A stretch of DNA of 64,000 bases from an uncultured Eubacteriales bacterium. GTDB lineage: Bacteria > Bacillota > Clostridia > Oscillospirales > Acutalibacteraceae. Position numbers and translations under genes: made by a program. The DNA lies in NCBI GenBank assembly GCA_900315875.1, contig ONAX01000001.1:38783-102782 (forward strand), in the 5' to 3' direction. Below the pieces are notes generated by a model. That model made no database searches and had not been told where the DNA came from. It worked only from the letters and a program-made list of their open reading frames with translations. This document shows positions 25,830-56,501 of the stretch, one piece after another. Numbering within the stretch: position 1 is the first letter of the stretch; every line of letters starts with the position of its first letter.

Positions 25830-26354
25830 TCAGTTCGTCAGAAGCACCAGCCTTTTATAGCCTATTCCCAGAATATCGCCGCTTTTTAGTGCCATTTTTC
25901 CTGTTATTTTAACTCCGTTAACATATGTGCCGTTCTTGGAGTTGAGGTCCTCGATAAACACTATCCCGTTATTGGAAAACAGACTGCAGTGATATCGGGA
26001 AACCGTATTGTCAGCAAGCTTTATATCTGCACTGCCGGAAGCTGAACCTATGGTTACGGGACGCAGCAGGGATATCACACCGTAATCCGCCCTGCTTTCC
26101 TGCTCGACAAGGCGCACGAGAACATCGGACGATCCTGCAGCTATGATCGTCCGCATATTTTCGCTGTTCATAAGCCCTGCTCCTTCACTTGTGTAAACGC
26201 CGTTTTCAACGTTTGCGCCGCCGTTAATGCTCATATTGTCCCTGTAATATTCAAATTTATTATTTGAATAATATTTCAGCAGGACAATCACAAAAACAAC
26301 CACTATCACAAGCAGAAGCAGTACCATTCCTATGAGAAAATATACTATTTCCAT
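25830..26354 (-). CDS. membrane-anchored FHA-domain protein
   Basis: 174 residues. One N-terminal TM segment (about 4-27) is followed by a short spacer and a C-terminal FHA domain (about 95-172) with the phosphothreonine-binding signatures TIGSASGSADIKL, TVSRYHCSLF and DLNSKNGTYVNG. FHA domains bind phosphothreonine peptides, so this is a membrane-attached reader of the kinases encoded in the same locus. It is the last gene of the cluster, 32 bases after a WXG100-like gene. Confidence 0.85.
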   Translation of the reverse strand: MEIVYFLIGMVLLLLVIVVVFVIVLLKYYSNNKFEYYRDNMSINGGANVENGVYTSEGAGLMNSENMRTIIAAGSSDVLVRLVEQESRADYGVISLLRPVTIGSASGSADIKLADNTVSRYHCSLFSNNGIVFIEDLNSKNGTYVNGVKITGKMALKSGDILGIGYKRLVLLTN

Positions 26355-26386
26355 ATCGTTCGCACTTTCCGCGTATTATATTAATC

Positions 26387-26635
26387 TCAGAGCGGCTTGC
26401 TGTCAGACAGGGTACCGAGGAATTCACCGTATTCCGTCATTTTCAGCATCAAAGTATACATTCTGCTGCTGATTTCGTCATACATAGCATAGAACCTTGC
26501 CGCTGATTCGTCATTCCATTGTCGGTTGAGCCCTGCCATACATTCGTCAGTACTGCTCCTGAGCCTTGCAAGCTCATCGGAGCAGCTGTTCACCTGCTCA
26601 ATACAGCGCGCTATACCTTCACGTTCACCATTCAT
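26387..26635 (-). CDS. WXG100-like small protein (WND variant)
   Basis: 82-residue all-helical protein. A central turn LNRQWNDESAARFY matches the WXG100 pattern W-x-G-x-A-A-x-x-F/Y except that Asp replaces Gly. RBS GAGGTG precedes the ATG by six bases. It follows another WXG100 gene by nine bases. It is likely a secreted partner or accessory of the type VII-like system; whether it is exported cannot be seen. Confidence 0.65.
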   Translation of the reverse strand: MNGEREGIARCIEQVNSCSDELARLRSSTDECMAGLNRQWNDESAARFYAMYDEISSRMYTLMLKMTEYGEFLGTLSDSKPL

Positions 26636-26644
26636 AATAGCACC

Positions 26645-26971
26645 TCAAAGCAAATCACTTGGCAGAGCGTCTACCTGATCCGTACTATGCGTATCAGCTG
26701 CCCTGTATGAATCCGAAATATCCTTCAGCTTGCTGCTGTACGACAAAAGCATAGGAACAAGCTGCTCAATATTATTGCAACACTGCGCAGCTGCAGCACC
26801 GAAGCTATCGGCTGATTTGCCTCTCCAATAGCCTTGCATTGAACCGAAAATACCCTCTATCTGTTCGAGCTCTCTGCCGAGAATGTCCGCGCTGCCATTT
26901 ATCACACCGGCTGCGTCGTCAAGTCGTTCGGTAACGGCACTCTGATCCTCATATTCTGTTACCAAAACCAT
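26645..26971 (-). CDS. WXG100-family protein (WRG)
   Basis: 108 residues, predicted helical hairpin with the turn MQGYWRGKSADSFGAAA, the canonical W-x-G. The start ATG overlaps the upstream stop (TGATG at 26971); a GTG three bases earlier is also possible. With the preceding gene it forms a co-translated pair, as seen for heterodimeric EsxA/EsxB-type substrates. Residues after the second helix are polar and probably disordered. Confidence 0.75.
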   Translation of the reverse strand: MVLVTEYEDQSAVTERLDDAAGVINGSADILGRELEQIEGIFGSMQGYWRGKSADSFGAAAAQCCNNIEQLVPMLLSYSSKLKDISDSYRAADTHSTDQVDALPSDLL

Positions 26972-27276
26972 CACCCCCGCATTGCAAGCTCATTTACAGC
27001 TTCAGAAGTACGCCTGGACGCAGCACGATAGCTGCTTTCGGCATATTTCATCTTCATCAGAAGCTGTTTCAGCTCTGTGATAACATCCGACAGCTTTTCT
27101 CTGTCCTGCTGCCATGCGCTGTAATATTTTGCGGCAGCATTACCCTTCCATGAAGCCCTGAGCATGCCAAGCTCGGCGTCAAGATTCCTGCTGACGCCCT
27201 CAAGCACCTCAATACTGCCCTCTATTTTGCCGATATCGGCTGCAAGCATGTCGCAATCCATTTCAATTCTGTTCAT
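26971..27276 (-). CDS. WXG100-family protein (WKG)
   Basis: 101 residues with two helices around LRASWKGNAAAKYYSAW, a canonical W-x-G turn. The ATG at 27276 has AGAGG five bases upstream; the GTG at 27282 overlaps that RBS. It overlaps the next WXG100 gene by one base (TGATG), indicating translational coupling. It is a likely dimer partner and substrate of the EssC-type system encoded at 31301-36301. Confidence 0.75.
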   Translation of the reverse strand: MNRIEMDCDMLAADIGKIEGSIEVLEGVSRNLDAELGMLRASWKGNAAAKYYSAWQQDREKLSDVITELKQLLMKMKYAESSYRAASRRTSEAVNELAMRG

Positions 27277-27330
27277 AAACACCTCTGAAAAGCTGCTATC
27301 ACGCAGGGCAGCAGCCGGGCTGACACCTGC

Positions 27331-28278
27331 TTATCTTGATTCGTACTTAACCGGCCAGAGATTACGGTCACCAACCGTAGTGTCAAAGTATACAAACAGC
27401 GTTTCGTTCTCCTTAACCTCTACGTTACAGTTATTTTGGCTGTTGTATGTAACTCCGTCGTCTAGTTCGCCCCAGCTATCCGTCCATTCTCCGTTTACGC
27501 GCACCTTGAACTGATATGACATTGCAGGAAGACCGCTGATTACAACTGTAAAGATTCCGTCGCCGTCCTCATCCGTCAGGGGAATATCAGTCGTCCATTC
27601 CTTGCACTGCGGGAATGTCCCGGTAATGCCGTATGAAACTGCTGTCTGTACCTGAATATCCAGATTACAGTTTCTGAGGGATGTGCAGCCGGAAAATGCA
27701 TTCTGCGGAACCTCGCTTTTATTGACTCCGTCCGGAAAAATTGCTGTTTCCAGCGAAGAACAACCGGCAAACGCATAGTCCCCGACAGAGGTCAGTGTTG
27801 ACGGTATAGTCACAACCTTAAGGCTCTTGCAGTATTTGCATACACCCTCTGAAAGCGCAGTAAGACCCTCGGGGAAGGTAAGCTCCTCGAGAGATTCACA
27901 GGATACAAATGCGTATTTACCGATTTCGGTAACGCCCTGCGGTATTGTCAGCTTTTTCAGAGAGACCATATCCGACAGAAGATATTCCTTGATCTCGCGC
28001 ACCGGATATCCTCCGATAGTAGCAGGTATATTTACCTCCGTTGCACTCAGATCTCCGGCATAGTATACTATCATAGCATACCCGTCTTTCACTACGTAGC
28101 CGAAGTCATTTTCGATAATGACCTTATTGGCATCACTCTTTTCAGAGTCCGAAACTTCGGGCCCGGACGCGGGACCGTTTAAGTTGCTCTGTGTCAAAAG
28201 ACTGCAACCGGAGGTGCACACTTCGGCAAGCAGCGCTGCTGCAAGCAAGACAGACAGCCTTCTGATTGATTTTTTCAT
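27331..28278 (-). CDS. BspA-like leucine-rich-repeat lipoprotein with X25-like C-terminal domain
   Basis: 315 residues. It has a signal peptide with lipobox TSGC (Cys ~25). BspA-type (LRR_5) repeats follow at about residues 85-210, with repeating IP/FP-x-G-V/L-T and YAF-x-x-C-x-S-L-E motifs. A C-terminal beta domain (TDEDGDGIFTVVISGLP, FKVRVNGEWTDSWG) resembles X25-type modules of starch-active enzymes. It is predicted to sit on the outer membrane face. Its place inside the secretion cluster, 55 bases upstream of WXG100 genes, suggests a surface component of the same system or a passenger gene; I cannot tell which. Confidence 0.78.
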   Translation of the reverse strand: MKKSIRRLSVLLAAALLAEVCTSGCSLLTQSNLNGPASGPEVSDSEKSDANKVIIENDFGYVVKDGYAMIVYYAGDLSATEVNIPATIGGYPVREIKEYLLSDMVSLKKLTIPQGVTEIGKYAFVSCESLEELTFPEGLTALSEGVCKYCKSLKVVTIPSTLTSVGDYAFAGCSSLETAIFPDGVNKSEVPQNAFSGCTSLRNCNLDIQVQTAVSYGITGTFPQCKEWTTDIPLTDEDGDGIFTVVISGLPAMSYQFKVRVNGEWTDSWGELDDGVTYNSQNNCNVEVKENETLFVYFDTTVGDRNLWPVKYESR

Positions 28279-29206: not shown

Positions 29207-29223
29207 AATCGTCATCCTTTCTC

Positions 29224-29526
29224 TCAGTGATATGTTCTTTCCGTGGCAACTTCAACGTTCCTTGCCTCGGCCTGTTCAAATCTTGCTGCGATCTGCATAA
29301 GAGCTACAATGTACTCGTTAATGGTCTTATAGAAATTGTCCATCTGAGCCACATCACTCGAAAATGCATTGTGGAAGGTTGCCCTTGCCTCGCCGTCCCA
29401 GCTGGAATTAAGTGTAGCCTCAATATTCTTGAGCTCGTTAACCTGACTCTGGAACTGTACGTTGAGATCATTCAGATGATCTGCCTGTGCTCTGATCTGT
29501 GCGGAATTGATTAACATTTCTGCCAT
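29224..29526 (-). CDS. canonical WXG100 protein (EsxA-like)
   Basis: 100 residues with a helix-turn-helix and the textbook turn LNSSWDGEARATFHNAF, the best WXG100 match in the window. The strong RBS AGGAGG and its own promoter at 29592-29621 suggest high expression, as for secreted EsxA. It is probably a substrate and co-secretion partner of the 28892-29206 product. The C-terminal tail FEQAEARNVEVATERTYH is where type VII export signals usually lie, but a standard YxxxD/E is not obvious. Confidence 0.88.
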   Translation of the reverse strand: MAEMLINSAQIRAQADHLNDLNVQFQSQVNELKNIEATLNSSWDGEARATFHNAFSSDVAQMDNFYKTINEYIVALMQIAARFEQAEARNVEVATERTYH

Positions 29527-29671: not shown

Positions 29672-29920
29672 TCAGATAATTATCAGCCTTTCGCTGTTCA
29701 TTATTCCGTTTTCCGCGCAGGACAGCTCATCCTTCAGGATGCTCATTCTGTCTGTGCTTACAAGCATAAGTCCGCTCATATTCTCTACCGGGGGATACTG
29801 TTCCTTCTGGCAGATCATAACGCAGATTTCCTCCTTCAGGTCGCTGACCGACGCATTTTCATCTATTCTGAAATCATATTTTTTTCCGATAATCGGTGCA
29901 AAAACCTCTATTACTATCAT
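29672..29920 (-). CDS. YukD/EsaB-like ubiquitin-fold protein
   Basis: 82 residues matching the YukD/EsaB family of type VIIb systems, cytosolic ubiquitin-like proteins (IEVFAPIIGKKYDFRIDENASVSD followed by LKEEICVMI). Members are required for secretion, possibly through EssC; the mechanism is open. The ATG overlaps the upstream stop (ATGA at 29917-29920). Its presence is the strongest sign, next to EssC, that this is a type VIIb-related locus. Confidence 0.75.
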   Translation of the reverse strand: MIVIEVFAPIIGKKYDFRIDENASVSDLKEEICVMICQKEQYPPVENMSGLMLVSTDRMSILKDELSCAENGIMNSERLIII

Positions 29921-36347: not shown

Positions 36348-36884
36348 TTACATAACCCTTCCGTCAAAATGAAACAGTGTTACCCTGAATACTGTGCTGC
36401 CGACAATTATCTTATCTCCGCTTAGCACCTCATAAACACACGAATGAACGTTCACCCTGCTGAGTCCCCTTTTCAGCTCTGTTCCGTTTGCCGAGCTGTC
36501 GCTAAGGTAAACCCTGTCGTGATCAAGAAACAGCATGCAGTGCATTCCGGAAACAGTACTTTCATTCAGCAGAATATTACAGTTGCCTTTTCTTCCGAAG
36601 CTCACCCCGTCACCCACGTCAAACACATATCCTTTTTTTTGCTTTGACGATATGTTTTTGATATACGCCATCATTCTTACATCGTATATTGACGATGTAT
36701 CGCCGACATGAAAGTTGGGATTTTTCAGGGACTGCCGCAGATATTTTTCCTTAACAATATTTGCGGCAGCCTGATAACACCTGATTTTTTCTTCTTTCCT
36801 GACATAATACAGGACAACCGATGTGATAGTTCCGGCAACTGCAGCAATGATGAAAACTATGATTACAATTCCCGTCAAGTCCAT
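36348..36884 (-). CDS. membrane-anchored FHA-domain protein
   Basis: 178 residues: an N-terminal TM segment (about 5-28), a ~45-residue basic linker and an FHA domain (about 85-178) with VSFGRKGNCNILL, TVSGMHCMLFL and LSDSSANGTELKRG. The usual SxxH Arg is replaced (VSGMHC), but the fold signature is clear. It mirrors the FHA protein at 25830-26354 in layout. It sits directly before essC (46-base gap), so it likely sits beside EssC at the membrane. Confidence 0.82.
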   Translation of the reverse strand: MDLTGIVIIVFIIAAVAGTITSVVLYYVRKEEKIRCYQAAANIVKEKYLRQSLKNPNFHVGDTSSIYDVRMMAYIKNISSKQKKGYVFDVGDGVSFGRKGNCNILLNESTVSGMHCMLFLDHDRVYLSDSSANGTELKRGLSRVNVHSCVYEVLSGDKIIVGSTVFRVTLFHFDGRVM

Positions 36885-38443: not shown

Positions 38444-38463
38444 ACTATGCTCCTCCGTTTTGG

Positions 38464-38592
38464 TCAATATTTTTTCCAGGTTTCCTTGAACGCCTTTATC
38501 CAGCGTCTCATAAATACCTGAAATAATGCAAACAGTATTACATCGGCGGCAATAATTCCTATCCCGATGTAAATAAATTCTTCTCCGCTCAC
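38464..38592 (-). CDS. 42-residue single-TM protein
   Basis: A short ORF starts at GTG 38592 with GGGGGTG six bases upstream and stops 20 bases before the TPR gene. The product has a short acidic N-terminus (SGEEF), one hydrophobic segment (about 6-27) and a basic, Trp-containing tail (RRWIKAFKETWKKY). The layout is that of a small membrane subunit. It fills the otherwise empty gap between the kinase and TPR genes. No homologue is known to me. Confidence 0.55.
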   Translation of the reverse strand: MSGEEFIYIGIGIIAADVILFALFQVFMRRWIKAFKETWKKY

Positions 38593-46600: not shown

Positions 46601-49600
46601 CACCTGTGTATTCAGCTGTCTTTGAGAAGGTGAACTCTATTTCCGGATCTGTAAGGTCAATTTCAAATACGCTGTATGCATCAGTGCTGACGTATTCATT
46701 GTTTGCTGAATCCTTAGCAGAGTTGTTGGTGCTTGTAACCTTGATTATGTAGTAACCGCTTTCAAGTCCCTTCTTGGGAGCTACTGCAAGATCATAATCG
46801 CAGTCTGTTACCTTTGTTTCTGCAAAATCTGCATCTGTGCTGCTTGTTCTTGAAAGAACGAACTTCTCGTCAGCTGCTGCAGATACTTCCTTGCCGTTAT
46901 CGGTAAAGCTTGCAGTCTCTGCCAGACCGTCAACGTTATAGCTGCCGTCAGCCTCTGCTGTCGGCTCCTGCTCGGTATAATAAACCTTTACATTGAGAGA
47001 TCTGAGACCAGGATCTGCATCCTGTGTTTTGTTTATGGACTTGGTGTTGATCTTTGCCGTAAAGTCAGAGTTTACCTGATTTGCAGGAACACCGTCAATT
47101 GAAATCGCAGGAGCGGTTTCTGTAACAGCGATCTCCTTTGTAGTACCCTCGCTGGTCATTCCGTCGGGTTTAAGAACTCTTTCCGGGTTCGGCTCTGCTC
47201 TGTTGATGTTATCGTTTGCATCAACTGTCAGAACATAAGCAACATCTCTGTCGAGTGTTGCGGTTGCCTTGTAAGTATGACCGCCGTCATCGGTTGTAAA
47301 GTCAAAGCTGCTTGTTATATTAGCAGAACCGTTTTTAACCTTAATGCTGTCAGACTTAACACCTGCTGTTTCATCTTCAACAGTGATCGTTACATCAACA
47401 TTCTCTGTGCGATATACGCCGAAGCTCAGCGCCTGTAGTATGCTGTCTGTTTCGTCTACGCTGTATGCAGTTGTGATCTTTGCCTCAGTGGAATCCACAG
47501 CGAATCTTTTTGCGTTTGCGCTGATATCCTTTGTGTTTCCGGTGTCATCTGTTATAGTTGCCGGTGTAAAGGTATATACATCCTCGCTGTCAAGCTCAAT
47601 GCTTGCAACGGTTTTGCCATCCTTATCCTCCCATGTGCCAAACGGGAAAACACCATCACCGGAATTTGTAAGTGTATATACAAATTTATTCTTGTCGTTA
47701 TTGAGGAGATCTGCATTTATATGGTTATCAGTGATTTCTGCAATAAGGGTAGCTTTCTGATCGAAATATTCTGTATTAGTATCATTGTCGGTATACTTAA
47801 CACTTTCTTCGATCCTGAAGCTTACCTCAGGTAATGTGGTGTCGATCTCAAATACACTATAAGCGTCTGTGCTCTTATCTACATTATTTTTACCTGTTGC
47901 TTTTATAATGTAGTATCCGCTTTCAATACCCTTAGCAGGATCAACTGCCAGTGAGTAATCGCAGGACTTAACCTTTGCTTTTGCAAAGTCTGTATCAGTG
48001 CTGCTTGTTCTTGAAAGAACGAACTTCTCGTCAGCTGCTGCAGATACTTCCTTGCCGTTATCGGTAAAGCTTGCAGCCTCTGCCAGACCGTCAACGTTAT
48101 AACTGCCGTCAGCCTCTGCTGTCGGTTTCTGCTCGCTGTAGTATACCTTAACGTCAAGTGCTTTCAGTCCGGGGTCAGCCCCCTGAGCTGCGCCGTCGGA
48201 TACTGCATTAATCTTTGCAGTAAAGCTGCTGTTAACCTGTGCAGTCGGAACATCTCTTATAATTACTGCAGGAACATCGTCTGTAACAGCGATTTCCTTG
48301 ACATTGCCGCCATCCTTCATTTCATCAGGCTTGAGTTCCTGAACGGGTGAGGGAGAATTTCTCTTGATATTGTCGTTAGCTTCAACTCTCAGACGATATG
48401 CTACATCTTTTCTGAGCTGAGCGCTTGCTTTAAAGGTATGTCCTTCATCAGTGGATGTGAAATCAAATTCGCTTGTAATATTCTCTTCGCTGTTAAACAC
48501 CTTAATGCTGTTTTCGTCAACACCCGCTACTGCGTCTGAAACAGTGATATCTACGCTGATAACCTCATCCGAGGTGCGGTAAATACCAAAGCTCAGTACA
48601 CTGAGAAGGTTGTTTGTGGGAGTAGATTTGTATACAGTTTCAATCTTTGCTTCTGTTTTATCAACTGCAAATTCTACGGACTTGTCGAGATTGGTTTCGT
48701 TGCCGATTCCGTCCTTAATGTATACTGCCTCTGCTTTGTGCCCTCCCTCTTCGGAAACCTCAACGGACGTAACGAACTTATCGCCGTCCTTTGTCCATTC
48801 TGTGGGGCTGACTTCATTACCGTCAAGCTTGTACTTGAAGTACTCGCCTGTCTGCAGCTTTGCAAGATCAAGTGTATCATCTGCGAAGCTGAATTTTACG
48901 GTAGCTTTGTCATCATAGATCTTTTTAGTGTTATCATCATAAACATTGCCCTCGCCTGAAACGTCAATGCCTACCTCAGCAGCATTTCTTTCAACATTAA
49001 ATGTAAAGCTATCGTTTTCAAGCTTGTTGCCGGCATTGTTCTCTATATTTACTACGGCAGTGTATATACCGTTCTTGAGTGCTTTGGAAACATCTGCCTT
49101 ATTGATCTTAAGGGTGTAATCCTGAGCTTCAACTGCAGAAGCGGAATATGCGCTGTTTGTTCCGGTAGTAAGTACGATATCGTATTCATTACCTGCACCT
49201 GCAGTTACGGAAGTACCGTCACATGTGAAAGAAGCAATTTTCTTCTCGGCAACAGCTTCCGCTCCGGAGTAAATGTCCAGGTTGAAAGAGTAAAGACCGA
49301 TAACGCTTCCGTTTTTCTTGCCGGATTCTGTTTTAATCGGAATCTCAAAAGACGGCTGAGCAGAAAATGAAGTCGTACCGCTTCCGCTGCCGTAAACTGC
49401 TGACGGTCTTGTATCCGTTACAACAACCGGATAGTTTTCGTCTATTGAAATAGGCGTTATAGTTGTCAGCTCTGTAATTTCTTTGATTTTTTCAGTTTTT
49501 ACGGTGTTTTCGCCCTTCATGAAGACTACTGTAACACCTGTATCAGCGTAATCGTCGCCGGTGGTGATATAATACTTGCCACCCTCGGCTGTTGCCGCCT

Positions 49601-50786
49601 TGCCGTTGATAGTAACACTGTCAAACGAAGCAGAACCCGGATCAGTGACGCTGACACCGATCTTTACATCTGTATTTGCATACAGACCGAAGGTAAGAAC
49701 GTTGAGCAGCTTATCAAGTCCGCTTGTGCTCTCTTTCTTTTCAGCGGTGCACTCTGTCGCTGTGGGAGCTCCGTCACTTACAGCAACAGTTGTTTTCAGA
49801 TCGAAGAGCTGACTTGTTCCGTAGCTTACCTTTGAGCCAAAGCCTATAGTCTTTCCGCTGACATCCTGAGGGATTGTATACTCGCTGCCGTCTATCGGAG
49901 TACTGTTGCCGTCTATTGTAACATAGTAGGAAACAGTCCTTGTACCAAAGGAGGAAAGTGAGTCCGGCTCAGAAACAGAAAGGGTAAGTGTATCTCCTGT
50001 ATATGCTTTGTCAGAAGATGATGTTACTGTGAAATCAAGCGGAGCATCCGTTACGGTATCATCATTTGCCACAGCACCGTTTGTGTCAATCTTAAGAGCG
50101 GAGCTTGTGGTATCTGATGCCGCGAAATCTACTGAATATACATCATTTACGAATGTCAGTTTTCCGTTTTCATCCTGACAGAGATACTTGCCGGTTTCGC
50201 CGGTAATCTCGGTAAAATCTTCATATTCGGTTTCGGTGGCTGCCTCTTTTGTAGCCACTATTTTAGTCATTCCTTCACCAAGATATGAAATGAACTCTGA
50301 AGGTAAAGAACCTGCAGAAAGAACATACATACAGGTACCGTTTTCGCCCGGGAAGGAACCAAATTTATCATCAGGAACAAATGTAAATGTCTTTTCTGAC
50401 AATGTGGCATGGGTTATTTTAAGATCAATCTTACTGTATGATCCATTAAAGAATATATAAGCGTTTTCATCCAGCAATAAAGGCTTATAATAAAGCTTTG
50501 CGCCTCTGTCGGGTGAAAAATATACTCCTGTGTCAGACTTATTAAGGGCTTTGTAGCTATCCCCATCCTTAGTAAACACTCCGCCGATATCTGTTCCGGT
50601 TTTATTGGTGACCGTAGCATAACTTGCAGATGCCTTGCTGAGTGTATTGACACCGCGCTGCTGGTTGCTCTGCGAAGGTTCACTTTCGACCGGAGCACCG
50701 ATAACATTATACGGTGCCATAGCAGAAACCAAAGTACCCGTAAGCAAAAGTGCCAGAATTTGCTTGGCTCCGTTAGACAATCTCAT
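40659..50786 (-). CDS. giant 3,375-residue surface protein with Ig-like repeats
   Basis: Signal peptide (about residues 1-30) and C-terminal TM segment followed by a KKKKK tail, so it is membrane-anchored and exposed. The N-terminal third carries repeated ~387-residue modules, marked by LSFGIYRT, LSFGVYRT, LTFGLYRS and LTFGLYAN followed by TITV-(T/E)-D strands. The remaining part has about a dozen ~100-residue Ig-like domains with signatures such as YFxxxRTLTVxVxExNF, GNxAxxxxSF and FxIDxTxPxI. The domains resemble bacterial Ig-like adhesin folds, but no named family is claimed. It could be a stalk, adhesin or wall-spanning fibre. The start ATG is one base after the upstream stop, with GGGAGG as RBS. 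Confidence 0.88.
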   Translation of the reverse strand: MRLSNGAKQILALLLTGTLVSAMAPYNVIGAPVESEPSQSNQQRGVNTLSKASASYATVTNKTGTDIGGVFTKDGDSYKALNKSDTGVYFSPDRGAKLYYKPLLLDENAYIFFNGSYSKIDLKITHATLSEKTFTFVPDDKFGSFPGENGTCMYVLSAGSLPSEFISYLGEGMTKIVATKEAATETEYEDFTEITGETGKYLCQDENGKLTFVNDVYSVDFAASDTTSSALKIDTNGAVANDDTVTDAPLDFTVTSSSDKAYTGDTLTLSVSEPDSLSSFGTRTVSYYVTIDGNSTPIDGSEYTIPQDVSGKTIGFGSKVSYGTSQLFDLKTTVAVSDGAPTATECTAEKKESTSGLDKLLNVLTFGLYANTDVKIGVSVTDPGSASFDSVTINGKAATAEGGKYYITTGDDYADTGVTVVFMKGENTVKTEKIKEITELTTITPISIDENYPVVVTDTRPSAVYGSGSGTTSFSAQPSFEIPIKTESGKKNGSVIGLYSFNLDIYSGAEAVAEKKIASFTCDGTSVTAGAGNEYDIVLTTGTNSAYSASAVEAQDYTLKINKADVSKALKNGIYTAVVNIENNAGNKLENDSFTFNVERNAAEVGIDVSGEGNVYDDNTKKIYDDKATVKFSFADDTLDLAKLQTGEYFKYKLDGNEVSPTEWTKDGDKFVTSVEVSEEGGHKAEAVYIKDGIGNETNLDKSVEFAVDKTEAKIETVYKSTPTNNLLSVLSFGIYRTSDEVISVDITVSDAVAGVDENSIKVFNSEENITSEFDFTSTDEGHTFKASAQLRKDVAYRLRVEANDNIKRNSPSPVQELKPDEMKDGGNVKEIAVTDDVPAVIIRDVPTAQVNSSFTAKINAVSDGAAQGADPGLKALDVKVYYSEQKPTAEADGSYNVDGLAEAASFTDNGKEVSAAADEKFVLSRTSSTDTDFAKAKVKSCDYSLAVDPAKGIESGYYIIKATGKNNVDKSTDAYSVFEIDTTLPEVSFRIEESVKYTDNDTNTEYFDQKATLIAEITDNHINADLLNNDKNKFVYTLTNSGDGVFPFGTWEDKDGKTVASIELDSEDVYTFTPATITDDTGNTKDISANAKRFAVDSTEAKITTAYSVDETDSILQALSFGVYRTENVDVTITVEDETAGVKSDSIKVKNGSANITSSFDFTTDDGGHTYKATATLDRDVAYVLTVDANDNINRAEPNPERVLKPDGMTSEGTTKEIAVTETAPAISIDGVPANQVNSDFTAKINTKSINKTQDADPGLRSLNVKVYYTEQEPTAEADGSYNVDGLAETASFTDNGKEVSAAADEKFVLSRTSSTDADFAETKVTDCDYDLAVAPKKGLESGYYIIKVTSTNNSAKDSANNEYVSTDAYSVFEIDLTDPEIEFTFSKTAEYTGDMQYFDQKVTLTATVNDKHINAALLNADSDKFTYSLTDSKDKAYAFGTWEDKDGKTVASVELDDEATYNFIPSKLVDETGNESDITAKAVDFAVDDTEADVKVSYGQSFSDVIAQVLTFGLYRSAEAEVTITVTDAISGINSSSIIVKNGEENITDKFEFSTEDNGHTYTATAKLDKNIAYVISVKALDNIGRTESENSANTTTIDPSQLTDDEKASTQTKEIASMEDKNDNQPLVTITEPENWSANSDNTLDVKFDVSSKTARADGEADPGIRSVKAELFYATSAAEKAQGNWQSVAEFNDIGNGVETVSGYSLTGFGTAIFSQTKTLDLSYTLHIADKKSGYYKLVVTAENNIIKTADGDSATYFTTTKEQLFAIDNDAPVLNVSYDNNTKKTVDGVDYYDNDRTLTIKITEVSFDLDYVKNNFSDIITEGTPKGEHQLKWEQPDNTKNEFVGTVTFTDYDDASDGHFTVNIPDFADMIGNNCIGYNESFIIDKTAPKISWKFEDENGVGPDNKYFSGSRKLTVNVEEHNFTLDDIEKTGTGAYLVYSMTSDGTDVAAGSKVIWLDWKENGENKFVGTYEFTDSEELLRDGEYTVVFTSLTDKAGNAAENSDFGKTETFVVDNTDPVITWEYDDHDGNLTTRVEKNSTVYYYDQMRTLKATIKEHNLTADDLNSGDYIDYSIKDEHGNELTLVWSATRNPDEYTASVDLDDLTDDDFDGKYTVVFRSLKDRAQRTAKNSNLGKTESFIIDKTEPVIKVEYLNDNGKWYQTDNDYQYFNDKSNPLTLKVTVTEHNFSADEIEEFISYSIVNEHGESISFDKWNHENGTNVFTAEYVFEDKSNDDTDGDYTVSVDSLNDKVGHKALDTDGAEFTGHSRDRIVIDYTAPVVNVEYDNNNSKTVDGAAYFDKNRTITVTVTDHGIKNAEDLVSLIDFAITSDETGNMVSRKVAADKWQKSGNTYTFKYTFQDTAHMSDGDFVVKFSGFTDPAGNKATDASGSVRDSFIDDRFVIDTTKPVISIDYKPAAGVQSYKNWTYYNSSDIVATITVDEYNFKNSADQNYNIADYEVVYITGQSTNKTTIDGGFSWTNAGGNKYVTYVRLPGNSRISRFDFFTMDKAGNTDEQKPAKSNFVIDDTAPTNLKISFSRSVMDIVLDVLTLGQYSKVTYGCYNASTTVTISAEDSTAGIEYLKYECIGNTGSRSFSGTVDMKSGNADPKPSQTYTFRVDPQFKGYVKLTAIDFSGNTTVYSTESDRKGIIVDDKNPLYENVKPVVNAAPQKAPRNNIYDGDVRVDVNVYDPVVNGVASGVYKVDYTITNPTTGYSESRTLKNTNTNVNTFDTNFVVDSNKFNSNNVKIRLIATDFAGNQSDPYNLTVDIDITKPTIKVEYQGGQANIVGGNEYYNSDRTAIITVTERNFDPADFEYKIENTIPIGIKSVPTMTSWTHSTNSADPDASTHVARIVYHEDGYYKFEMSFQDKAGNKATSPAPDQFRMDQTKPEISISFDNNSALNGNYYAAPRTATITVKELNFSWDEVKYILSATAADNTTSVPGPQLTNMSDSGDVHTAKVYFSEDGMFSFTVDNTDFAKNVADRKTESTFYLDQVIPELVITGVNNDVAYGGDVNINIAISDINYGGDHNYKLERIGVDGTRTDVTRAFGFEDSADGTSVILGAIANTKDNDGIYILSASAKDKAGNLHPETVRFSVNRFGSTYLLSDETIKINNKCIKDEQDVVIMEFNADPIIKDEIIVTAGGSTKTLTEGSEYSVEISGNAETWYKAVYTISKGVFAEEGNYEVMLKSKDNKLSTTNSNNDIDTTNEKRLPKLVVSFVVDKQPPMVSISGIEDNKPYRESTKTLTITLQDSNFSDKIGDNKITVTVGGKTYDVKEDQIKKTESGYVITIDLTGDGNPSDIVVTVTDKAGNVGTAKIENFTLRASELQMFLDNTVAVVLTIIGFLLLIAAIIIIIVVASRKKKKKNQS
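46837..48124 (-). repeat. near-identical repeat copies inside the giant gene
   Basis: 46837-46963 and 47998-48124 are identical except for two seen mismatches, offset by 1,161 bp (387 codons). They mark recently duplicated or gene-converted modules; the remaining modules are more diverged. Confidence 0.85.
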
Positions 50787-50787: not shown

Positions 50788-51270
50788 TCAGCTTTCCTCC
50801 CTTATACGTTTTCCTCTTACGCCTGCCATGCCGAATATCGTACGGAAATTAATCCCATTGACGATAGCTCGCATCTGCGCAGAGAATATTAATGTTGAAA
50901 TAAAGAAATAGATCAGAACATCCGGCATTCTCTCCCCCGTAGCCACTGAAATGACGGTCATAATAAGGCTTAAAACAAAGACAACGTCAAAAACTGCAGC
51001 CGGTGTAGAGGAAAAGAACGTCAACAGTCCGGGTCTTCCTGCGGCAGACCTTTCAGATTTTGATGACTTTTTCCTCTGCTTTGAAGCCATGAAGAAAAAC
51101 ACATATCCGACGATCAGCCCGGCGTAAAAGACTGCGCCTTCAATAATAACAAGCGGATGCACACTGTCACCGGGTCCGGATGCTGTTATGAAAGGCGACA
51201 GCATAAAGACATAAGACGAAACAAACAGTGCAGCGATCGTTACAAGTAAAGATCTTTTTGCAGATCTCAA
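50788..51270 (-). CDS. four-TM membrane protein, unknown
   Basis: 160 residues with about four hydrophobic segments (near 8-28, 40-62, 90-110, 118-140). A basic/Ser-rich loop (KQRKKSSKSERSAAG) separates the second and third. It starts at TTG 51270 with GGGAGGTG upstream. The stop is one base from the giant gene start, implying coupled expression. No family is recognised. It could be an anchor or assembly factor for the giant surface protein. Confidence 0.7.
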   Translation of the reverse strand: MRSAKRSLLVTIAALFVSSYVFMLSPFITASGPGDSVHPLVIIEGAVFYAGLIVGYVFFFMASKQRKKSSKSERSAAGRPGLLTFFSSTPAAVFDVVFVLSLIMTVISVATGERMPDVLIYFFISTLIFSAQMRAIVNGINFRTIFGMAGVRGKRIREES

Positions 51271-51371: not shown

Positions 51372-51953
51372 TCAACAGATGACCTCGTCCGTATGAATAT
51401 GGATGATCTTCTGCAATATCTGAAATTCAGAACTGTTCATACCGCCGCTGAGTACGGTTGTTTCGGAGCTGTTATCCAGCACCGAGGTCTCCCCTGCTTC
51501 GGACAGAAGCGACGTTTCTGCCACTGCGGCAGCTGCACCAACGTTGAAGGCTGTCTGTGCAGCAGCTGCGGGAGCCTGATTCGGAAGCGCACCGGTCATT
51601 TCTGTACCGTCGGTACTTACTCTGTTAACACTTTGTACGGTGAACGTTGTGTTCTGTTCAGCCTGCTGCTGCATCTGCATAGCCATCTGGGCTGCAACCT
51701 GCGGCGGCACCGATGACGGAGCCTTGAAGCCCTCGTCAAGTCTTGATGTAAGAGTTTTTCCGTTTTGTCTGAGACGTCCGGTCTGGCTATTGGCCTTCTG
51801 CATCTCTTCAATGGTTTTCTTCTTCGCGCGTCCGGTTCTGATATTGAATATAAGTGGAATATTGAATACAAAAAACAGCACTATTGACAGCACAAAGAAC
51901 AAACCACACAGAGCCAGGCAGACGTACGTAGCTATATTAAGAAATTCATTCAT
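51372..51953 (-). CDS. membrane protein with three ETS/TTxL phospho-motifs
   Basis: 193 residues. One TM segment (about 8-36) is followed by a basic stretch and a Gln/Ala-rich disordered region. Three motifs follow: ETSLL (146-150), ETSVL (155-159) and ETTVL (164-168). A conserved-looking tail (FQILQKIIHIHTDEVI) ends it. The ETT/ETS motif resembles the phosphothreonine site of GarA (ETTS) that FHA domains bind. The start overlaps the kinase stop (ATGA), so it is a likely kinase substrate presented to the FHA proteins of the locus. No enzymatic domain. Confidence 0.75.
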   Translation of the reverse strand: MNEFLNIATYVCLALCGLFFVLSIVLFFVFNIPLIFNIRTGRAKKKTIEEMQKANSQTGRLRQNGKTLTSRLDEGFKAPSSVPPQVAAQMAMQMQQQAEQNTTFTVQSVNRVSTDGTEMTGALPNQAPAAAAQTAFNVGAAAAVAETSLLSEAGETSVLDNSSETTVLSGGMNSSEFQILQKIIHIHTDEVIC

Positions 51954-53779
51954 TCACTATCACCTGCCTGATCATTTCTTCCATATGTTTCTGTTATCTG
52001 CTGACGTGCCTTTCCAAGAGATACTTTTGCATCCGTGACACGCTTTCCGAAATCGCTTACATTATCAAACTGAAGCGTGGTTTCAAGCAGTTTCAGATCC
52101 TCCTCGATATTGTCGAGCAGCTTCGCCACATTACTTGCTTCAATGCCTGCAGCCTTGAATCTGTCAGCGCGGTTTACTACTTCACTTGAAACAAGTCTGC
52201 ATACCTCAACGAGAAGAACCGACGCTCCGTGCTCCTTGTTTTCATAACGTGCATTTGCCTCTGCTGTTTCAAGTGCAAGCCAGTATTTTGCGTAATCAAC
52301 TGACTGAGTTTTGCCTGTGGTCATATCAACCGAAGCTCTTGCTGAAACCATTTTATAGTAGCTTGCCACATCATAGAGTGCGGAAGCTGTTGTCTTATTG
52401 TCCTCTGAGCAATACTCCTTTGCCTTGTCCAGCCATTCAAGGCTGCTGTTCAGACCTTCCTGTTTATTTGAGCAGTTCAGAAAAAGGTTTGTCCCAAGAG
52501 GAAGAAATATCTTATCAGCAAATGTTTCATTATAATACTTGCCGGCATTGCTATCCGTAAAGTAAGATCCTGTTACATCCTTGAATTCCTGATATTCCTC
52601 AAGGTCATATGCTCTGGTTTCGCTGTCAGTAGTTTTATTGTTTTCGTTTTTGTTGTATGTAAGCGTTGCCCCTTCGAGAGACGCATCCTTGAAATATGAG
52701 TTCAAAAGTTCTTCAAATGCCTCTACTCTCGAATCATCGCATTCAATTGTTTTCTGCAGATATTCACGGTATTCCTTACGCTTTGTAAGGTCATTATCCG
52801 TCATCTGATAATCTTCTATTGCAACCCTTGTTTTGTCAAGAAGCTCCTGATAGTTCTGTGCTCTCAGGGTAGTATTTGCAAAATTGAAGCCAAGTGCTCC
52901 CACACCCATTACACCCGTAAGGGCTACTGAGGTCCAGAAAAGATTCCACTTTGTTTTCTGTGACTTTCTGCTTTCCTCTTCAAGATACTGAATATTATCC
53001 AGAGCGTACAAAAGCTCTGCACAACTCTGATATCTGTCGTTCGGATTGAGCTGAGTACATTTCAGAATGATCTGCTCAAGTCCTGACGAAAGCAGTGGGT
53101 TCCACTGACGTATCGGGTACATTTCGTATGGCGGTGTTGCCGGGTTATGACCCGTTACCAGATGGTACATTGTTGCACCGAGACAATAAATATCCGTTCT
53201 CGCGTCCGTCTGTCCCTGTCCGCCGAACTGCTCCGGTGCCGCGTAGCCTCTTGTACCGAGACAGGTGGTATCTGCAACGCTTGATGATTTGAATTCTCTC
53301 GCCGTTCCGAAGTCGATAAGCGCGATATTGTTATCCGGCTTAAGCATAACATTGGAAGGCTTCATATCACGGTATATTATTGCAGGGTTCCTGGAATGAA
53401 GATAGCCCAGAACATCGCAGAGCTGCTTGGACCACTCTATAACGTCGTCCTGCGGCTGAGCTCCGCTCGCCTTCAGCACGTCGCTGAGAGGCTTGCCCTG
53501 GATATAGTCCATCACTATAAGAAATGTGCCCTCTCTGTCGATAACATCGACGATGCTCGGCAGGTTGGGGTGATTCAGCTTTTTGAGCATGTCTGTTTCA
53601 GCTATAAGGTTCTGGCGCACAACCTCGTAGTTCTGCATGCCGTCTTTTCTGATCTCCTTAATAGCCCAGATCTTGTTTGCTCTTTCGTTTCTTGCCTGGT
53701 AAACGACGCTCATGCCGCCCTTACCAATGACATCAAGTATTTTATATTTTCCGTCGATTACTGATCCGATATCCAACAT
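51950..53779 (-). CDS. Ser/Thr protein kinase (PknB-type) with TM and helical extracellular domain
   Basis: 609 residues. The kinase domain (1-270) has GKGGMS loop (19-24), Lys41, YRDMKPSN (136-143), DFG (156-158) and activation-loop threonines in ADTTCLGTRGYAAPEQ. All catalytic residues are present. A TM segment lies at about 281-300. The rest is helical and acidic, with no PASTA repeats. This active kinase is paired with PP2C (13 bases upstream) and with its likely substrate at 51372. Compared with the kinase at 38626 it is the complete, canonical one. Confidence 0.92.
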   Translation of the reverse strand: MLDIGSVIDGKYKILDVIGKGGMSVVYQARNERANKIWAIKEIRKDGMQNYEVVRQNLIAETDMLKKLNHPNLPSIVDVIDREGTFLIVMDYIQGKPLSDVLKASGAQPQDDVIEWSKQLCDVLGYLHSRNPAIIYRDMKPSNVMLKPDNNIALIDFGTAREFKSSSVADTTCLGTRGYAAPEQFGGQGQTDARTDIYCLGATMYHLVTGHNPATPPYEMYPIRQWNPLLSSGLEQIILKCTQLNPNDRYQSCAELLYALDNIQYLEEESRKSQKTKWNLFWTSVALTGVMGVGALGFNFANTTLRAQNYQELLDKTRVAIEDYQMTDNDLTKRKEYREYLQKTIECDDSRVEAFEELLNSYFKDASLEGATLTYNKNENNKTTDSETRAYDLEEYQEFKDVTGSYFTDSNAGKYYNETFADKIFLPLGTNLFLNCSNKQEGLNSSLEWLDKAKEYCSEDNKTTASALYDVASYYKMVSARASVDMTTGKTQSVDYAKYWLALETAEANARYENKEHGASVLLVEVCRLVSSEVVNRADRFKAAGIEASNVAKLLDNIEEDLKLLETTLQFDNVSDFGKRVTDAKVSLGKARQQITETYGRNDQAGDSE

Positions 53780-53792
53780 AATAAATCACACT

Positions 53793-54560
53793 CTATTCTG
53801 ATCTTATTACAATGACCGAAATATTGTCTGTCTCCTGCCTGTACTTATTAAGATCGGTCAGATAGACAGCCGATTGCCTGAGCATTTCTGCACTTTGACG
53901 TCTTGCCGGGTTGAACTGCTCGAACATTTCCGCTTCAGTTATTATATGTCTGAAACCGTCCGAACAGAGAAGGTAAACTTCATTCGGTCTTACATCGTCA
54001 TCAAAGAAATCAGGCTGAACAAACGAGCTTGCTCCTATACACTGCAGCAGCACATTCCTTTTGGGGTGGTTCATAGCCTCCTCATAGGTCATCCTGCCCG
54101 AATCAAGCTCTCTTTGTACAAAGGTATGATCCTTCGTCAGTACCGTGGTCCTGTCGGTGTATTTATACGCTCTCGAATCGCCTACATTAATTATATAGTA
54201 CCTCGACTTGTAAATCAGCATAGCCACAAGAGTAGTACCGAGGCTGATTGATTTTTCTGCGCCGTAGGCTGCTATTTTTGAATTCATCTGTGAGGCGATA
54301 TTTTCCCATGTTTTGAAAAGCTCTTCCTTATTGAAGCCGGTTTTCAGAGTCTGCGGGAAGTCCTTTTCAAACCATCGGAAATAAGCTTCAATAACTGAGG
54401 CGCTGGCGACCTCGCCTTTGGCAAGGCCGCCCATACCATCACAAAGAACGGTAAAAACTATTTCTTCATTTTCGTAACTCGCTTTGACGGCAAGCACAGA
54501 ATCCTGATTCGTGCTTTTCTTTATTCCAACGTCTGTATGTGCGGTTATCAAAAATTTCAA
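53793..54560 (-). CDS. PP2C-family protein phosphatase
   Basis: 255 residues. PPM motifs: MKFLITAHTDVG...NQD near the start, CDGMGGLAKGE (about 40-50), NVGDSRAYKY, LTKDHTFVQRELDSG and LLCSDGFRHIITE, giving the acidic metal ligands. The TTG at 54560 is chosen since GGGGTG lies seven bases upstream; an ATG at 54575 would add five residues but has a poorly placed RBS. It is the expected phosphatase partner of the kinase gene that follows 13 bases later. Confidence 0.9.
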   Translation of the reverse strand: MKFLITAHTDVGIKKSTNQDSVLAVKASYENEEIVFTVLCDGMGGLAKGEVASASVIEAYFRWFEKDFPQTLKTGFNKEELFKTWENIASQMNSKIAAYGAEKSISLGTTLVAMLIYKSRYYIINVGDSRAYKYTDRTTVLTKDHTFVQRELDSGRMTYEEAMNHPKRNVLLQCIGASSFVQPDFFDDDVRPNEVYLLCSDGFRHIITEAEMFEQFNPARRQSAEMLRQSAVYLTDLNKYRQETDNISVIVIRSE

Positions 54561-54585
54561 GTTAATGCACCCCATTTTTTGAAGT

Positions 54586-56214
54586 TTAGCCCTTGAACTC
54601 GAATTCGATCAAGGAAATCTTAAGCTTATCGCCGTTCTGGATGAGAACCTCCTGGTTCGGTGTAAGCTTGTTGCCGTTGATGTATGTGCCGTTCTTGGAG
54701 CCCATATCAACAACGTAGCATCTGCCTGCTCTTACTCTGATCTTGACATGCAGACGGCTTACTGAGTTATCATCAGCTATGCAGTAGTCAACTCTGCTTC
54801 TTTCCTTACCGATTGCAAACTCAGGCTTATTGATGATGATCTTCTCGCCGCTCTTTGTATTAACAAGAACGCCTGACGGAATTCCTACTGTTGCACCGCC
54901 GCCGAGAACTGTTGTCTCACCTGCGCCGTCGCTGAGGACTGTTGTCTCGCCTGCACCCTGTGCCGGGTTCATCGGAGGCTGGTTGTAGCCGCCCATCGGA
55001 GGCTGCGGAGGAGCCATCGGGGGCTGAGGCGGAGCCATCGGAGGCTGAGGCGGAAGCTGAGGCTGAGTTGCCGGAGGAGGCATTGAGCCGGGATATGTGC
55101 CGGGACGTGCCGGAGGCGGAACGGGAGCTGCCGGAGCGGGCTTTTTCTTTGTAAGCAGTACGATCATAACGATGATCAGAATTACTACTACAACTGCAAT
55201 ACCAACAATTACAATGATAATGATCATGTTGTTATTGTTGTCTTCTGCAGGAACTACAGGCTTGCTCTCTTCTGAGGGCTTGCTGTCAAGAGCAGGCTTG
55301 CTTTCTTCAACAGGTGTGCTATCAATTGCGGGTTTGCTGTCCTCTGTCGGCTTGCTGTCAACAGCCGGCTGGCTGTCGGGCTTGCTGTCAACTACGGGAG
55401 CTACAGTACCGCTTGACTCCTCATAGGGGATACCGAAGTTGTTGCATACATCCTTAACCTTCTGGATCGGAACTGCAATGTAACCGTCATCCTTCTTTGT
55501 AAAGGTAAGAGCAACTACGTCGCCTGCCTCGTTAATAACAGGACCGCCGATAAAACCGTTGATCGGGTTGCTCATTGCAAACTGGATGAACTTTGTCTCT
55601 TCCTCGATACGTGTTACCTTACCTTCGTTGATAACTGTCTTTTCTTCGCTGATTGCGGAGCTGACCTCATCAACAACAACTACATCCCAGATGTTATCGG
55701 TAGAATAACCGATGCTGTAGATGGTCTGTGTGGTTTCAACTGCGTTGCTGTCGCCGAGTACGAGAGCCTTGTAGGTCGACTTTTCAAGGTCAATAGACTG
55801 AGAAAGCTGCATTACAGCAAACTGCATCTTTGTATCCTTGAACTTGCTGGTGGCGTCAACGTATGCGTCGCCGATCTTAACCTTGAATCTGATCTTGGAT
55901 TCATCGAATACAAAGTTCTGACCAACATTACGAGTAAGTGCCTGCTCATAGTTGTAGCCGAGAATCTCTTTGCCTGTTACTACGGTCTGGCTGTTGATAA
56001 GGAAGCCTGTCATTGAGAGAACATGATACTGAGTCACGCCGTCAACATACAGACATTCTACCCATACAACGCCCTTTTCGTTTTCTTTGACTTCATCGGA
56101 AGCTGTTCCGGCTGCGGATGCGCTGATCGCAGAGCCGAAGACTGTAACAGCTGCCAGTGTCAGCGCCGTAACAACGGCAAACACTTTTGAAGCCAGTCTT
56201 TTTCTAAAGCCCAT
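54586..56214 (-). CDS. secreted pseudo-protease/TM/ETTVL/FHA transmembrane protein
   Basis: 542 residues from ATG 56214. It has a signal peptide (1-35), a trypsin-like domain (about 40-260), DSKP/EESKP repeats (about 276-322), and a TM segment (330-355). A proline-rich cytosolic spacer, two ETTVL motifs (423-427, 433-437) and an FHA domain (about 465-530; FAIGKERSRVDYCI, SVSRLHVKI, DMGSKNGTYINGN) follow. The protease fold lacks catalytic residues: GNSGGP reads GFIGGP and the TAxH region reads TGKEI. It probably senses something outside and signals through the FHA end. It is the first gene of the locus, behind a perfect promoter. Confidence 0.85.
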   Translation of the reverse strand: MGFRKRLASKVFAVVTALTLAAVTVFGSAISASAAGTASDEVKENEKGVVWVECLYVDGVTQYHVLSMTGFLINSQTVVTGKEILGYNYEQALTRNVGQNFVFDESKIRFKVKIGDAYVDATSKFKDTKMQFAVMQLSQSIDLEKSTYKALVLGDSNAVETTQTIYSIGYSTDNIWDVVVVDEVSSAISEEKTVINEGKVTRIEEETKFIQFAMSNPINGFIGGPVINEAGDVVALTFTKKDDGYIAVPIQKVKDVCNNFGIPYEESSGTVAPVVDSKPDSQPAVDSKPTEDSKPAIDSTPVEESKPALDSKPSEESKPVVPAEDNNNNMIIIIVIVGIAVVVVILIIVMIVLLTKKKPAPAAPVPPPARPGTYPGSMPPPATQPQLPPQPPMAPPQPPMAPPQPPMGGYNQPPMNPAQGAGETTVLSDGAGETTVLGGGATVGIPSGVLVNTKSGEKIIINKPEFAIGKERSRVDYCIADDNSVSRLHVKIRVRAGRCYVVDMGSKNGTYINGNKLTPNQEVLIQNGDKLKISLIEFEFKG

Positions 56215-56472
56215 ATAAAACATCCTTTCACTTTTGTGCAGGCAGGCCAAGGCTCCGGGGCACAGACTGACACAAATTTTTTATATCCAGAAGCTGTCGC
56301 TTCAAAGATCCGATAAATAATTCACTGCAGAAAACAGCAGTAAACACAAAAGATGCATCGAAAACCTTCAGAGAAAAATCATTTGTCGAAGCATAGTCCG
56401 GCAGAACCATAATCACAACTAATCCGGGACACACTCCGACAAGATTGAAATATTTTAAGGTTCACACAACCA

Positions 56473-56501
56473 ATTATATTATTTCAGGAAGGATTTGTCA
56501 A
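56473..56501 (-). promoter_or_regulatory. perfect consensus promoter of the secretion/signalling locus
   Basis: Minus strand TTGACA (56501-56496), a 17-base spacer and TATAAT (56478-56473). It gives a ~250-base leader before 56214. The rest of the 56215-56691 gap is AT-rich, with two short ATTTGTCAA direct repeats (near 56493 and 56592) and no other gene I can support. Confidence 0.9.

What the first reader, a model, noticed from the sequence alone, without database searches (positions are those of the whole stretch)
25830..56501. Contiguous type VII-like secretion locus merged with a Ser/Thr phosphorylation circuit
About 21 collinear genes carry EssC, YukD/EsaB, five WXG100-type proteins, three FHA proteins besides EssC's own FHA, two kinase-TM proteins, PP2C, LytTR and a 3,375-residue surface protein. 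EssA, EssB and EsaA are not recognisable. Type VIIb systems normally need those (established). Here kinase, phosphatase and FHA genes occupy the locus instead, suggesting a variant whose assembly or gating is set by phosphorylation.
Basis: partly seen in the sequence, partly recalled or inferred. Interest (0 to 1): 0.9.

Follow-up and report, generated by a model that had tools for sequence, protein, structure and literature searches.

The report
Phosphorylation-wired type VII secretion gene cluster
A gut bacterium carries a protein-export machine of the type VII kind whose gene cluster also encodes protein kinases, a phosphatase and proteins built to recognise phosphorylated threonine, and short conserved tags in two of its membrane proteins suggest how phosphorylation could assemble or switch the machine.

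Summary
In detail: 21 collinear minus-strand genes (25830-56250) carry EssC, a weak but syntenic YukD, five WXG100-type proteins, three FHA proteins, two Ser/Thr kinases, PP2C, LytTR and a 3,375-aa surface protein. EssB, EssA, EsaA and LXG are not found in the genome over curated cut-offs. The locus belongs to a large EssC clade of mostly gut and rumen Clostridia. Seventeen relatives fetched upstream share the order protease/FHA-PP2C-kinase-short TM protein-giant; 15 also have the second kinase. The kind is known: Garrett et al. 2024 (PMC11217815) described T7SSc-j, several with kinase, phosphatase and FHA parts, and already proposed phosphorylation control. New here: (1) a combination that matches none of c-j as their text describes them; (2) an EspG-fold chaperone, supported by structure prediction; (3) a membrane trypsin-like protease fused to FHA, its catalytic residues lost in this window only; (4) a GarA/OdhI-like T-x-[VIL]-L motif, about 18-21 times over shuffles, in the short TM protein's tail and in the protease's linker, with the Ser form at chance. 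The motif, refined after inspection, is the best evidence for a phosphothreonine-FHA switch. Phosphorylation and secretion are untested.

The parts
54586..56250 (-). tryFHA: signal peptide, trypsin-like domain (catalytic His and Ser lost here), TM, linker with two T-x-[VIL]-L motifs, C-terminal FHA
   Evidence: Pfam Trypsin_2 50.2 bits, FHA 59.2 bits; motifs; lost residues against 17 relatives
53793..54575 (-). PP2C phosphatase (TsxF-like)
   Evidence: PP2C_2 and PP2C over cut-off
51950..53779 (-). kin: membrane Ser/Thr kinase with helical C-terminal region (TsxD-like)
   Evidence: Pkinase 165.9 bits; K, YRD, DFG kept in window and 17 relatives
51372..51953 (-). TMshort: N-terminal TM segment and unstructured-looking tail with three T-x-[VIL]-L motifs (TsxH/K-like)
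   Evidence: found in 17 of 17 cassettes
50788..51270 (-). TM4: small protein with several hydrophobic segments
   Evidence: no Pfam family over cut-off; HMM hit in 7 of 17 cassettes
40659..50786 (-). giant: 3,375-aa envelope protein with signal peptide and C-terminal TM, weak Ig-like matches (TsxI-like)
   Evidence: Big_12/Big_13 below cut-off; ends read
38626..40482 (-). kinTPR: membrane Ser/Thr kinase with TPR region (TsjD-like)
   Evidence: Pkinase 132.1 bits and TPR; K, HSD, DFN
36902..38467 (-). TPRreg: membrane-anchored TPR protein with a CarboxypepD_reg-like stretch
   Evidence: TPR_19 47.8 bits; CarboxypepD_reg 28.2 bits, below cut-off
36348..36884 (-). FHA2: membrane-anchored FHA protein
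   Evidence: FHA 37.1 bits
31301..36301 (-). EssC/TsxC ATPase with N-terminal FHA
   Evidence: TIGR03928 1044.7 bits
30591..31304 (-). LytTR DNA-binding regulator (compare TsiN)
   Evidence: LytTR 76.4 bits
29917..30594 (-). EspG-fold chaperone (TsxG-like); likely start at 30594
   Evidence: model pLDDT 90.6; Foldseek hits are EspG structures
29672..29920 (-). YukD/EsaB-like protein (TsxB)
   Evidence: PF08817 E=0.003, sub-threshold; same place in G024
29224..29526 (-). WXG100 protein A1
   Evidence: PF06013 39.7 bits
28892..29215 (-). WXG100 protein A2
   Evidence: PF06013 29.4 bits
28363..28716 (-). small helical ORF, possible substrate-partner protein
   Evidence: start at the internal Met; local HMM hits in other loci; no Pfam family
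27331..28278 (-). lipoprotein-like LRR protein with an X25-like domain
   Evidence: LRR_5 92.4 bits, X25_BaPul_like 28.7 bits
26971..27282 (-). WXG100 protein A3
   Evidence: PF06013 42.5 bits
26645..26974 (-). WXG100 protein A4
   Evidence: PF06013 48.1 bits
26387..26635 (-). WXG100-like protein A5, sub-threshold
   Evidence: PF06013 24.0 bits
25830..26354 (-). FHA3: membrane-anchored FHA protein
   Evidence: FHA 71.1 bits

Best explanation
A dedicated type VII secretion system of a subtype not described in the text of the 2024 survey, allied by content to T7SSe/j and T7SSi: an FHA-bearing EssC, WXG100 proteins, a YukD-like subunit and an EspG-fold chaperone (shown by sequence and model). Inferred mechanism: two membrane kinases sense the envelope or the outside through their helical and TPR regions; one or both phosphorylate threonines in the T-x-[VIL]-L motifs of the short TM protein's cytosolic tail and of the tryFHA linker; FHA domains (tryFHA, FHA2, FHA3, perhaps EssC) bind these phosphothreonines and so assemble or gate the ATPase complex at the membrane; PP2C resets it. 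The giant Ig-like protein spans the wall in place of EsaA, and LytTR controls transcription. Shown: gene content, conservation, kept kinase motifs, motif enrichment with Thr and Leu+3 preference. Inferred: phosphorylation, FHA binding, gating, secretion.
For: Collinear locus and families. Conserved cassette: tryFHA, PP2C, kin and TMshort in 17 of 17 fetched relatives, two or more kinases in 15 of 17 (order). 40 of 41 full loci with STK, PP2C or non-EssC FHA against near-empty control windows. kin K/YRD/DFG kept in window and 17 relatives. EspG fold. T-x-[VIL]-L: TMshort tails 46 motifs in 16 of 18 against 2.6 in shuffles (maximum 8 of 1000), tryFHA linkers 38 in 18 of 18 against 1.8 (maximum 7); Ser form 2 and 1 against 1.8 and 1.6. 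Self-bound FHA tails in DgcB, GarA and OdhI have Ser at +1 and hydrophobic +2 and +3 (passages of PMC6733907), which TSVL and TTVL fit.
Against: No phosphorylation, binding or secretion data. The loose motif was defined after seeing the tails; the strict form is not enriched over all 1,656 ORFs of the 82 sources (16 against 22 in one shuffle). L179 and L180 TMshort tails lack it. The reversed motif is also over shuffles, though less (9 against 2.6, 8 against 1.9). Five tryFHA-like proteins of other subgroups lack it. The EssC FHA in the window has Ser where a GR arginine is expected (the expectation is recalled). kinTPR has DFN in the window and 10 relatives.
Confidence: 0.55

Rival explanations
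1. It is an ordinary member of a published subtype (T7SSe, j or i) whose description was drawn from few genera; the extra parts are accessory and no new subtype is needed.
For: A, A2, B, C with FHA, kinase, PP2C, giant I and short TM parts agree with T7SSe; a TPR kinase with T7SSj; LytR-like regulator and EspG with T7SSi (PMC11217815). A kinTPR-like kinase (35% over 565 aa) lies beside a different EssC in G390.
Against: No subtype text lists LytTR, EspG, kinase, PP2C and giant together, or two kinases, or a protease-FHA protein. DUF6382, which marks TseJ/TsjJ, was not matched in the window.
Confidence: 0.3
2. The kinases are structural, EssB-like scaffolds and the FHA contacts do not depend on phosphorylation, as described for EssC-EssB in T7SSb; the motifs serve something else.
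For: Same topology idea as EssB and TscD in PMC11217815; the FHA Arg position is not kept in the EssC of the window.
Against: Catalytic K, D and DFG kept in kin across 18 sequences; a PP2C in every fetched cassette; Thr over Ser preference in the motif.
Confidence: 0.2
3. Two neighbouring, unrelated loci: a T7SS and a kinase/phosphatase signalling operon that happen to be adjacent.
For: Gaps of 176 and 158 bp near the giant and kinTPR genes; in some subgroups the kinase or PP2C is elsewhere or not seen in the stretch.
Against: Order kept in 17 of 17 fetched cassettes spanning both halves and 40 of 41 full loci.
Confidence: 0.03
4. A decaying copy that no longer works in this genome.
For: The window's protease domain lost His and Ser; full-length EssC is in only one of 36 other same-genus genomes, with fragments in a second.
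Against: All 21 frames are open, including 3,375 and 1,666 codons, with tight overlaps; EssC is 70% identical to that of G024 over its full length.
Confidence: 0.05

Closest known systems
T7SSe (Garrett et al. 2024, PMC11217815)
   Same: WXG100 pair, YukD-like B, FHA-bearing C, membrane kinase D, PPM phosphatase F, large Ig-like I with signal peptide and C-terminal TM, short single-TM H/K proteins (by description)
   Different: No DUF6382-FHA protein matched; two kinases; LytTR, EspG, TPRreg and protease-FHA added
T7SSj (same paper)
   Same: Kinase with TPR C-terminal region, phosphatase, I, K, FHA-bearing C
   Different: Second, non-TPR kinase; LytTR, EspG and protease-FHA added; DUF6382 not matched
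T7SSi (same paper)
   Same: YukD-like B, FHA-bearing C, EspG-like G, LytR-like regulator N
   Different: Kinases, PP2C and giant present here; TsiM not looked for; EssC relation untested
T7SSb (Bacillus, Staphylococcus)
   Same: EssC with FHA, WXG100, YukD
   Different: EssA, EssB, EsaA not found
EspG chaperones of mycobacterial T7SSa
   Same: Predicted fold: the 17 PDB hits with E<=0.001 are EspG structures or complexes
   Different: 6-14% identity; clients unknown; PE/PPE substrates were not searched for
GarA/OdhI/DgcB self-binding FHA tails
   Same: Thr motif with Ser/Thr +1 and hydrophobic +2, +3 near an FHA domain
   Different: Glu at -1 instead of -2; repeated motifs also in a separate membrane protein

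Membership tests
Type VII secretion system (general) | EssC/EccC-type ATPase | tested here: met
   TIGR03928 1044.7 bits over 778.4
Type VII secretion system (general) | WXG100 protein at the locus | tested here: met
   Four over cut-off, one sub-threshold
T7SSb | EssB/YukC | tested here: not met
   No match in the genome; B. subtilis control rings
T7SSb | EssA and EsaA | tested here: not met
   Only sub-threshold hits, the EsaA one an ABC-2 protein
T7SSe | WXG100 pair, B, FHA-bearing C, kinase D, phosphatase F | tested here: met
   B sub-threshold
T7SSe | TseJ: DUF6382 with C-terminal FHA | tested here: inconclusive
   No DUF6382 match in the window's proteins, nor in three J-like proteins of relatives, so the library may lack or miss the model
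T7SSe | TseH, TseI and TseK orthologues | tested here: inconclusive
   Giant and TMshort fit the description only; no reference sequence compared
T7SSe | EssC clusters with TseC | not tested
   No named reference sequence on hand
T7SSj | Kinase with TPR region | tested here: met
   38626-40482
T7SSj | TsjJ (DUF6382-FHA); EssC clusters with TsjC | tested here: inconclusive
   DUF6382 as above; EssC not compared
T7SSi | EspG-like G and LytR-like N with B and FHA-bearing C | tested here: met
   whether LytR-like in the paper means LytTR is not certain
T7SSi | EssC clusters with TsiC; TsiM present | not tested
   No named Vallitalea sequence on hand
EspG chaperone | EspG fold | tested here: met
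   Foldseek best E 2.3e-7, TM 0.60 by query
EspG chaperone | Binds WXG100-type or PPE client | not testable with these tools
   Needs binding assay

The most novel reading that the evidence does not exclude
The short TM protein is a dedicated multi-site phosphothreonine scaffold: its tail, phosphorylated by the locus kinases on repeated T-x-[VIL]-L sites, is read by tryFHA, FHA2, FHA3 and EssC, so that this secretion complex is assembled by phosphothreonine-FHA bonds in place of EssB/EssA contacts, and an external protease domain is coupled to the switch through the same motif.
Probability: 0.4. Interest if true: 0.85.

Novelty: new variant of a known kind. Interest (0 to 1): 0.6.

Why it matters
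How type VII systems other than T7SSa and T7SSb are assembled and switched on is open; the 2024 survey noted kinase, phosphatase and FHA genes and proposed control without naming sites. A short, conserved, Thr-preferring motif beside cognate FHA domains turns that remark into a test with peptides and recombinant domains. It would link FHA self-recognition switches (GarA/OdhI) to secretion gating, as with the threonine phosphorylation of type VI secretion mentioned in the same survey. Most relatives found are from gut or rumen Clostridia.

Tried and rejected
YukD 'absent' was dropped when the direct scan and synteny showed it. EsaA at C86 was rejected as an ABC-2 protein. 'Pseudo-protease component' was dropped: of the copies aligned, only the window's lost the His and Ser. 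A strict ETTVL-type motif is not enriched over all ORFs of the 82 sources (16 against 22 in one shuffle); it is in 15 of 17 tryFHA and 8 of 15 TMshort. The looser T-x-[VIL]-L form was defined after seeing those tails, so its significance is not that of a prior hypothesis. Controls, TMshort tails then tryFHA linkers, observed against shuffle mean: S-x-[VIL]-L 2/1.8 and 1/1.6; T-x-[VIL]-A 0/3.9 and 0/3.8; -V 1/2.9 and 1/3.4; -D 3/1.9 and 2/0.4; T-x-[AGSP]-L 7/4.3 and 0/3.5; reversed L-[VIL]-x-T 9/2.6 and 8/1.9. EssB-likeness of kin's outer region stayed unresolved: the 50 PDB matches shown are kinase domains.

Rows dropped and limits: the EssC tree used 72 of the 82 sources of our set (ORF over 1,400 aa) and 102 of 103 sequences; the one left out is the split EssC of G027. 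In one search two of 82 sources (L111, L128) gave no EssC ORF under the thresholds. EssB was searched in 50 of 80 relative genomes. Cassettes were fetched for 17 of the 20 genomes, which were chosen because they showed the giant or kinTPR type; L185/L186 and L179/L180 are near relatives, so rows are not independent. The giant gene is in several pieces in L172 and L186. The greedy ORF filter hid some small genes, so counts come. Local HMMs were built iteratively from window seeds, so their counts are approximate. Of 6 tryFHA-like proteins outside the two-kinase type, five were shown and lack the motif; L156 fell under that call's length filter.
Full report
What is there. The window lies on contig C40 of a 2.26 Mb genome (98.5% complete). 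Beside a glyA-like gene (24421-25692, plus strand; name recalled from the translation), 21 minus-strand genes run from 56250 to 25830. In transcription order: tryFHA, PP2C, kin, TMshort, TM4, giant, kinTPR, TPRreg, FHA2, EssC, LytTR, EspG-like, YukD-like, A1, A2, hairpin, LRR, A3, A4, A5, FHA3. Five 4-bp overlaps join kin-TMshort, EssC-LytTR, LytTR-EspG, EspG-YukD and A3-A4.

All named parts are present. YukD is weak (18.7 bits, cut-off 27) and the genome search missed it, but its place between EspG-like and A1 is the same in G024, and a YukD-like ORF by a local HMM is in 71 of 80 relatives. The fifth WXG100 is sub-threshold. EssB, EssA, EsaA and LXG are not found over cut-off in the genome.

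Relatives. With EssC as query over 60 genomes, the full-length protein is in the own genome and one (G024) of 36 others of the genus, with fragments in G005; the own genome and six others of the genus also show a different EssC-like protein split in two frames. In a class-level sample of 391 genomes, G331 and G332 have 43-44% identical full-length EssC. A scan of named genome contigs with three EssC sequences found 92 relatives and kept 80 loci, 39-69% identical in the best segment; most titles name Clostridia (Lachnospiraceae, Oscillospiraceae, Ruminococcus and others), among them Anaerosporobacter faecicola, Oscillibacter valericigenes and Bilifractor porci. In a tree of 102 EssC sequences the 72 of this set form one clade (support 0.991), apart from the two genomes with EssB. 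The set was found by similarity, so the extent of the clade is biased.

Synteny. Of 80 loci (up to 10 kb flanks, many cut by contig ends), LytTR is in 66, EspG-like in 63, YukD-like in 71, STK in 56, FHA outside EssC in 71, PP2C in 19, TPRreg in 28; of the 41 loci with full flanks, 40 have an STK, PP2C or non-EssC FHA and L137 has none. Seventeen control windows (331 kb) from genomes of these relatives had STK in 2, LytTR in 2 and none of the others. PP2C is low because it lies beyond the flank where the giant gene is present. A kinTPR query matched 20 of 20 preselected genomes; in 15 of them two kinase matches lie 9-14 kb apart on one contig. Upstream stretches of 17 of these hold tryFHA, PP2C, kin and TMshort in 17 of 17, two or more kinases in 15 (L187 and L188 have one), TPRreg in 13 (in L175 and L178 the stretch ends before it) and TM4 in 7.

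EspG. The 225-aa product (start 30594), aligned with 49 homologues, gives a model with pLDDT 90.6 and pTM 0.87. Foldseek against PDB: 17 hits at E<=0.001, all EspG1, EspG3 or EspG5 or their complexes, best 2.3e-7 with TM 0.60 by query; the next hit is at E 0.07. Identity is 6-14%, so this is a structural assignment.

Kinases and protease. kin has K, YRD and DFG in the window and 17 relatives; kinTPR has K and HxD with DFN (window and 10 relatives) or DFG (5 relatives). kin's model has pLDDT 76 and its best PDB matches are Stk1 and PknB kinase domains. tryFHA has a trypsin-like domain outside, TM, linker and FHA. The 17 relatives keep SGGP (GNSGGP, once GHSGGP, once GSSGGP), and the 16 that cover the site keep a His; the window has TGKEI and GFIGGP instead (the catalytic positions are recalled, the Asp was not examined).

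The motif. The TMshort tail and the tryFHA linker carry repeats of T-x-[VIL]-L, often GETTVL or GETSVL. Over the window plus 17 relatives: TMshort tails 46 motifs in 16 of 18 sequences, shuffles 2.6 (maximum 8 in 1000); tryFHA linkers 38 in 18 of 18, shuffles 1.8 (maximum 7); the Ser form is at chance, the reversed form 3.5-4 times over shuffles. In the extracellular part of tryFHA the motif is under chance (3 against 8.7), and other ORFs of the cassettes have 1.05 per 1000 residues against 17.2 in the tails. TMshort tails otherwise align poorly, so the motif is kept while the rest drifts. In DgcB, GarA and OdhI the self-bound FHA tail has hydrophobic +2 and +3 and Ser at +1 (passages of PMC6733907); TSVL and TTVL fit, with Glu at -1 instead of -2. 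The FHA domains of tryFHA and FHA2 keep SxxH and NxT-type positions in most rows; EssC FHA keeps SxxH and NG in the window but not the GR arginine (which residues bind phosphothreonine is recalled). Against: L179 and L180 tails lack the motif, and five tryFHA-like proteins in other subgroups lack it.

Prior art. PMC11217815 (abstract, whole Results, passages of other sections) defines T7SSc-j and proposes phosphorylation control; its main text has no match for Ruminococc, Oscillospir, Lachnospir or Oscillibacter (figures, Table 1 entries and supplements were not seen). A search for T7SSi, T7SSj or TsxC returned only this paper; one pairing type VII secretion with Lachnospiraceae and WXG100 returned none. 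Searches were seen as listings (20 of 37, 20 of 81, 15 of 15, 15 of 157 and 1 of 1 papers); apart from this survey none shown is on this combination by title or start of abstract. Only an open-licence library was searched.

Verdict. A real, conserved type VII variant of a published kind, with a combination of parts not described for c-j in the text read, and a specific, testable phosphothreonine-FHA hypothesis. Whether it deserves a new subtype letter depends on an EssC comparison that could not be run.

Noticed in passing
genome contig C19:1-20000 (locus L032): A second type VII-like locus in the same genome: EssC-like ATPase split into frames of 1036 and 517 aa, one WXG100 over cut-off and further weak ones, two kinase matches, two PP2C-like genes, and TPR proteins; similar split ATPases occur in six other genomes of the genus.
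   Followed up: partly
L034:1369-3993 (G024, beyond FHA3): Three further WXG100-like proteins, a 383-aa protein with a weak WXG100 match and a DUF4176 protein: a possible substrate module not seen in the window.
   Followed up: no
window 51372-51953, C-terminal end: The short TM protein ends in a conserved I-H-T-(D/E)-E-type stretch after the variable tail, in most relatives; meaning unknown.
   Followed up: no
L084/L085 (G390, same family): A different EssC clade next to a kinTPR-like kinase (35% over 565 aa), a TPRreg-like fragment and a 432-aa protein with C-terminal FHA: parts are shared between EssC clades.
   Followed up: partly
genome contig C38:28001-36000 (L191): A separate kinase and PP2C pair, probably the housekeeping pair, so the pair in the window is an additional one; the genome has 8 Pkinase matches, two of them in the window.
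   Followed up: partly
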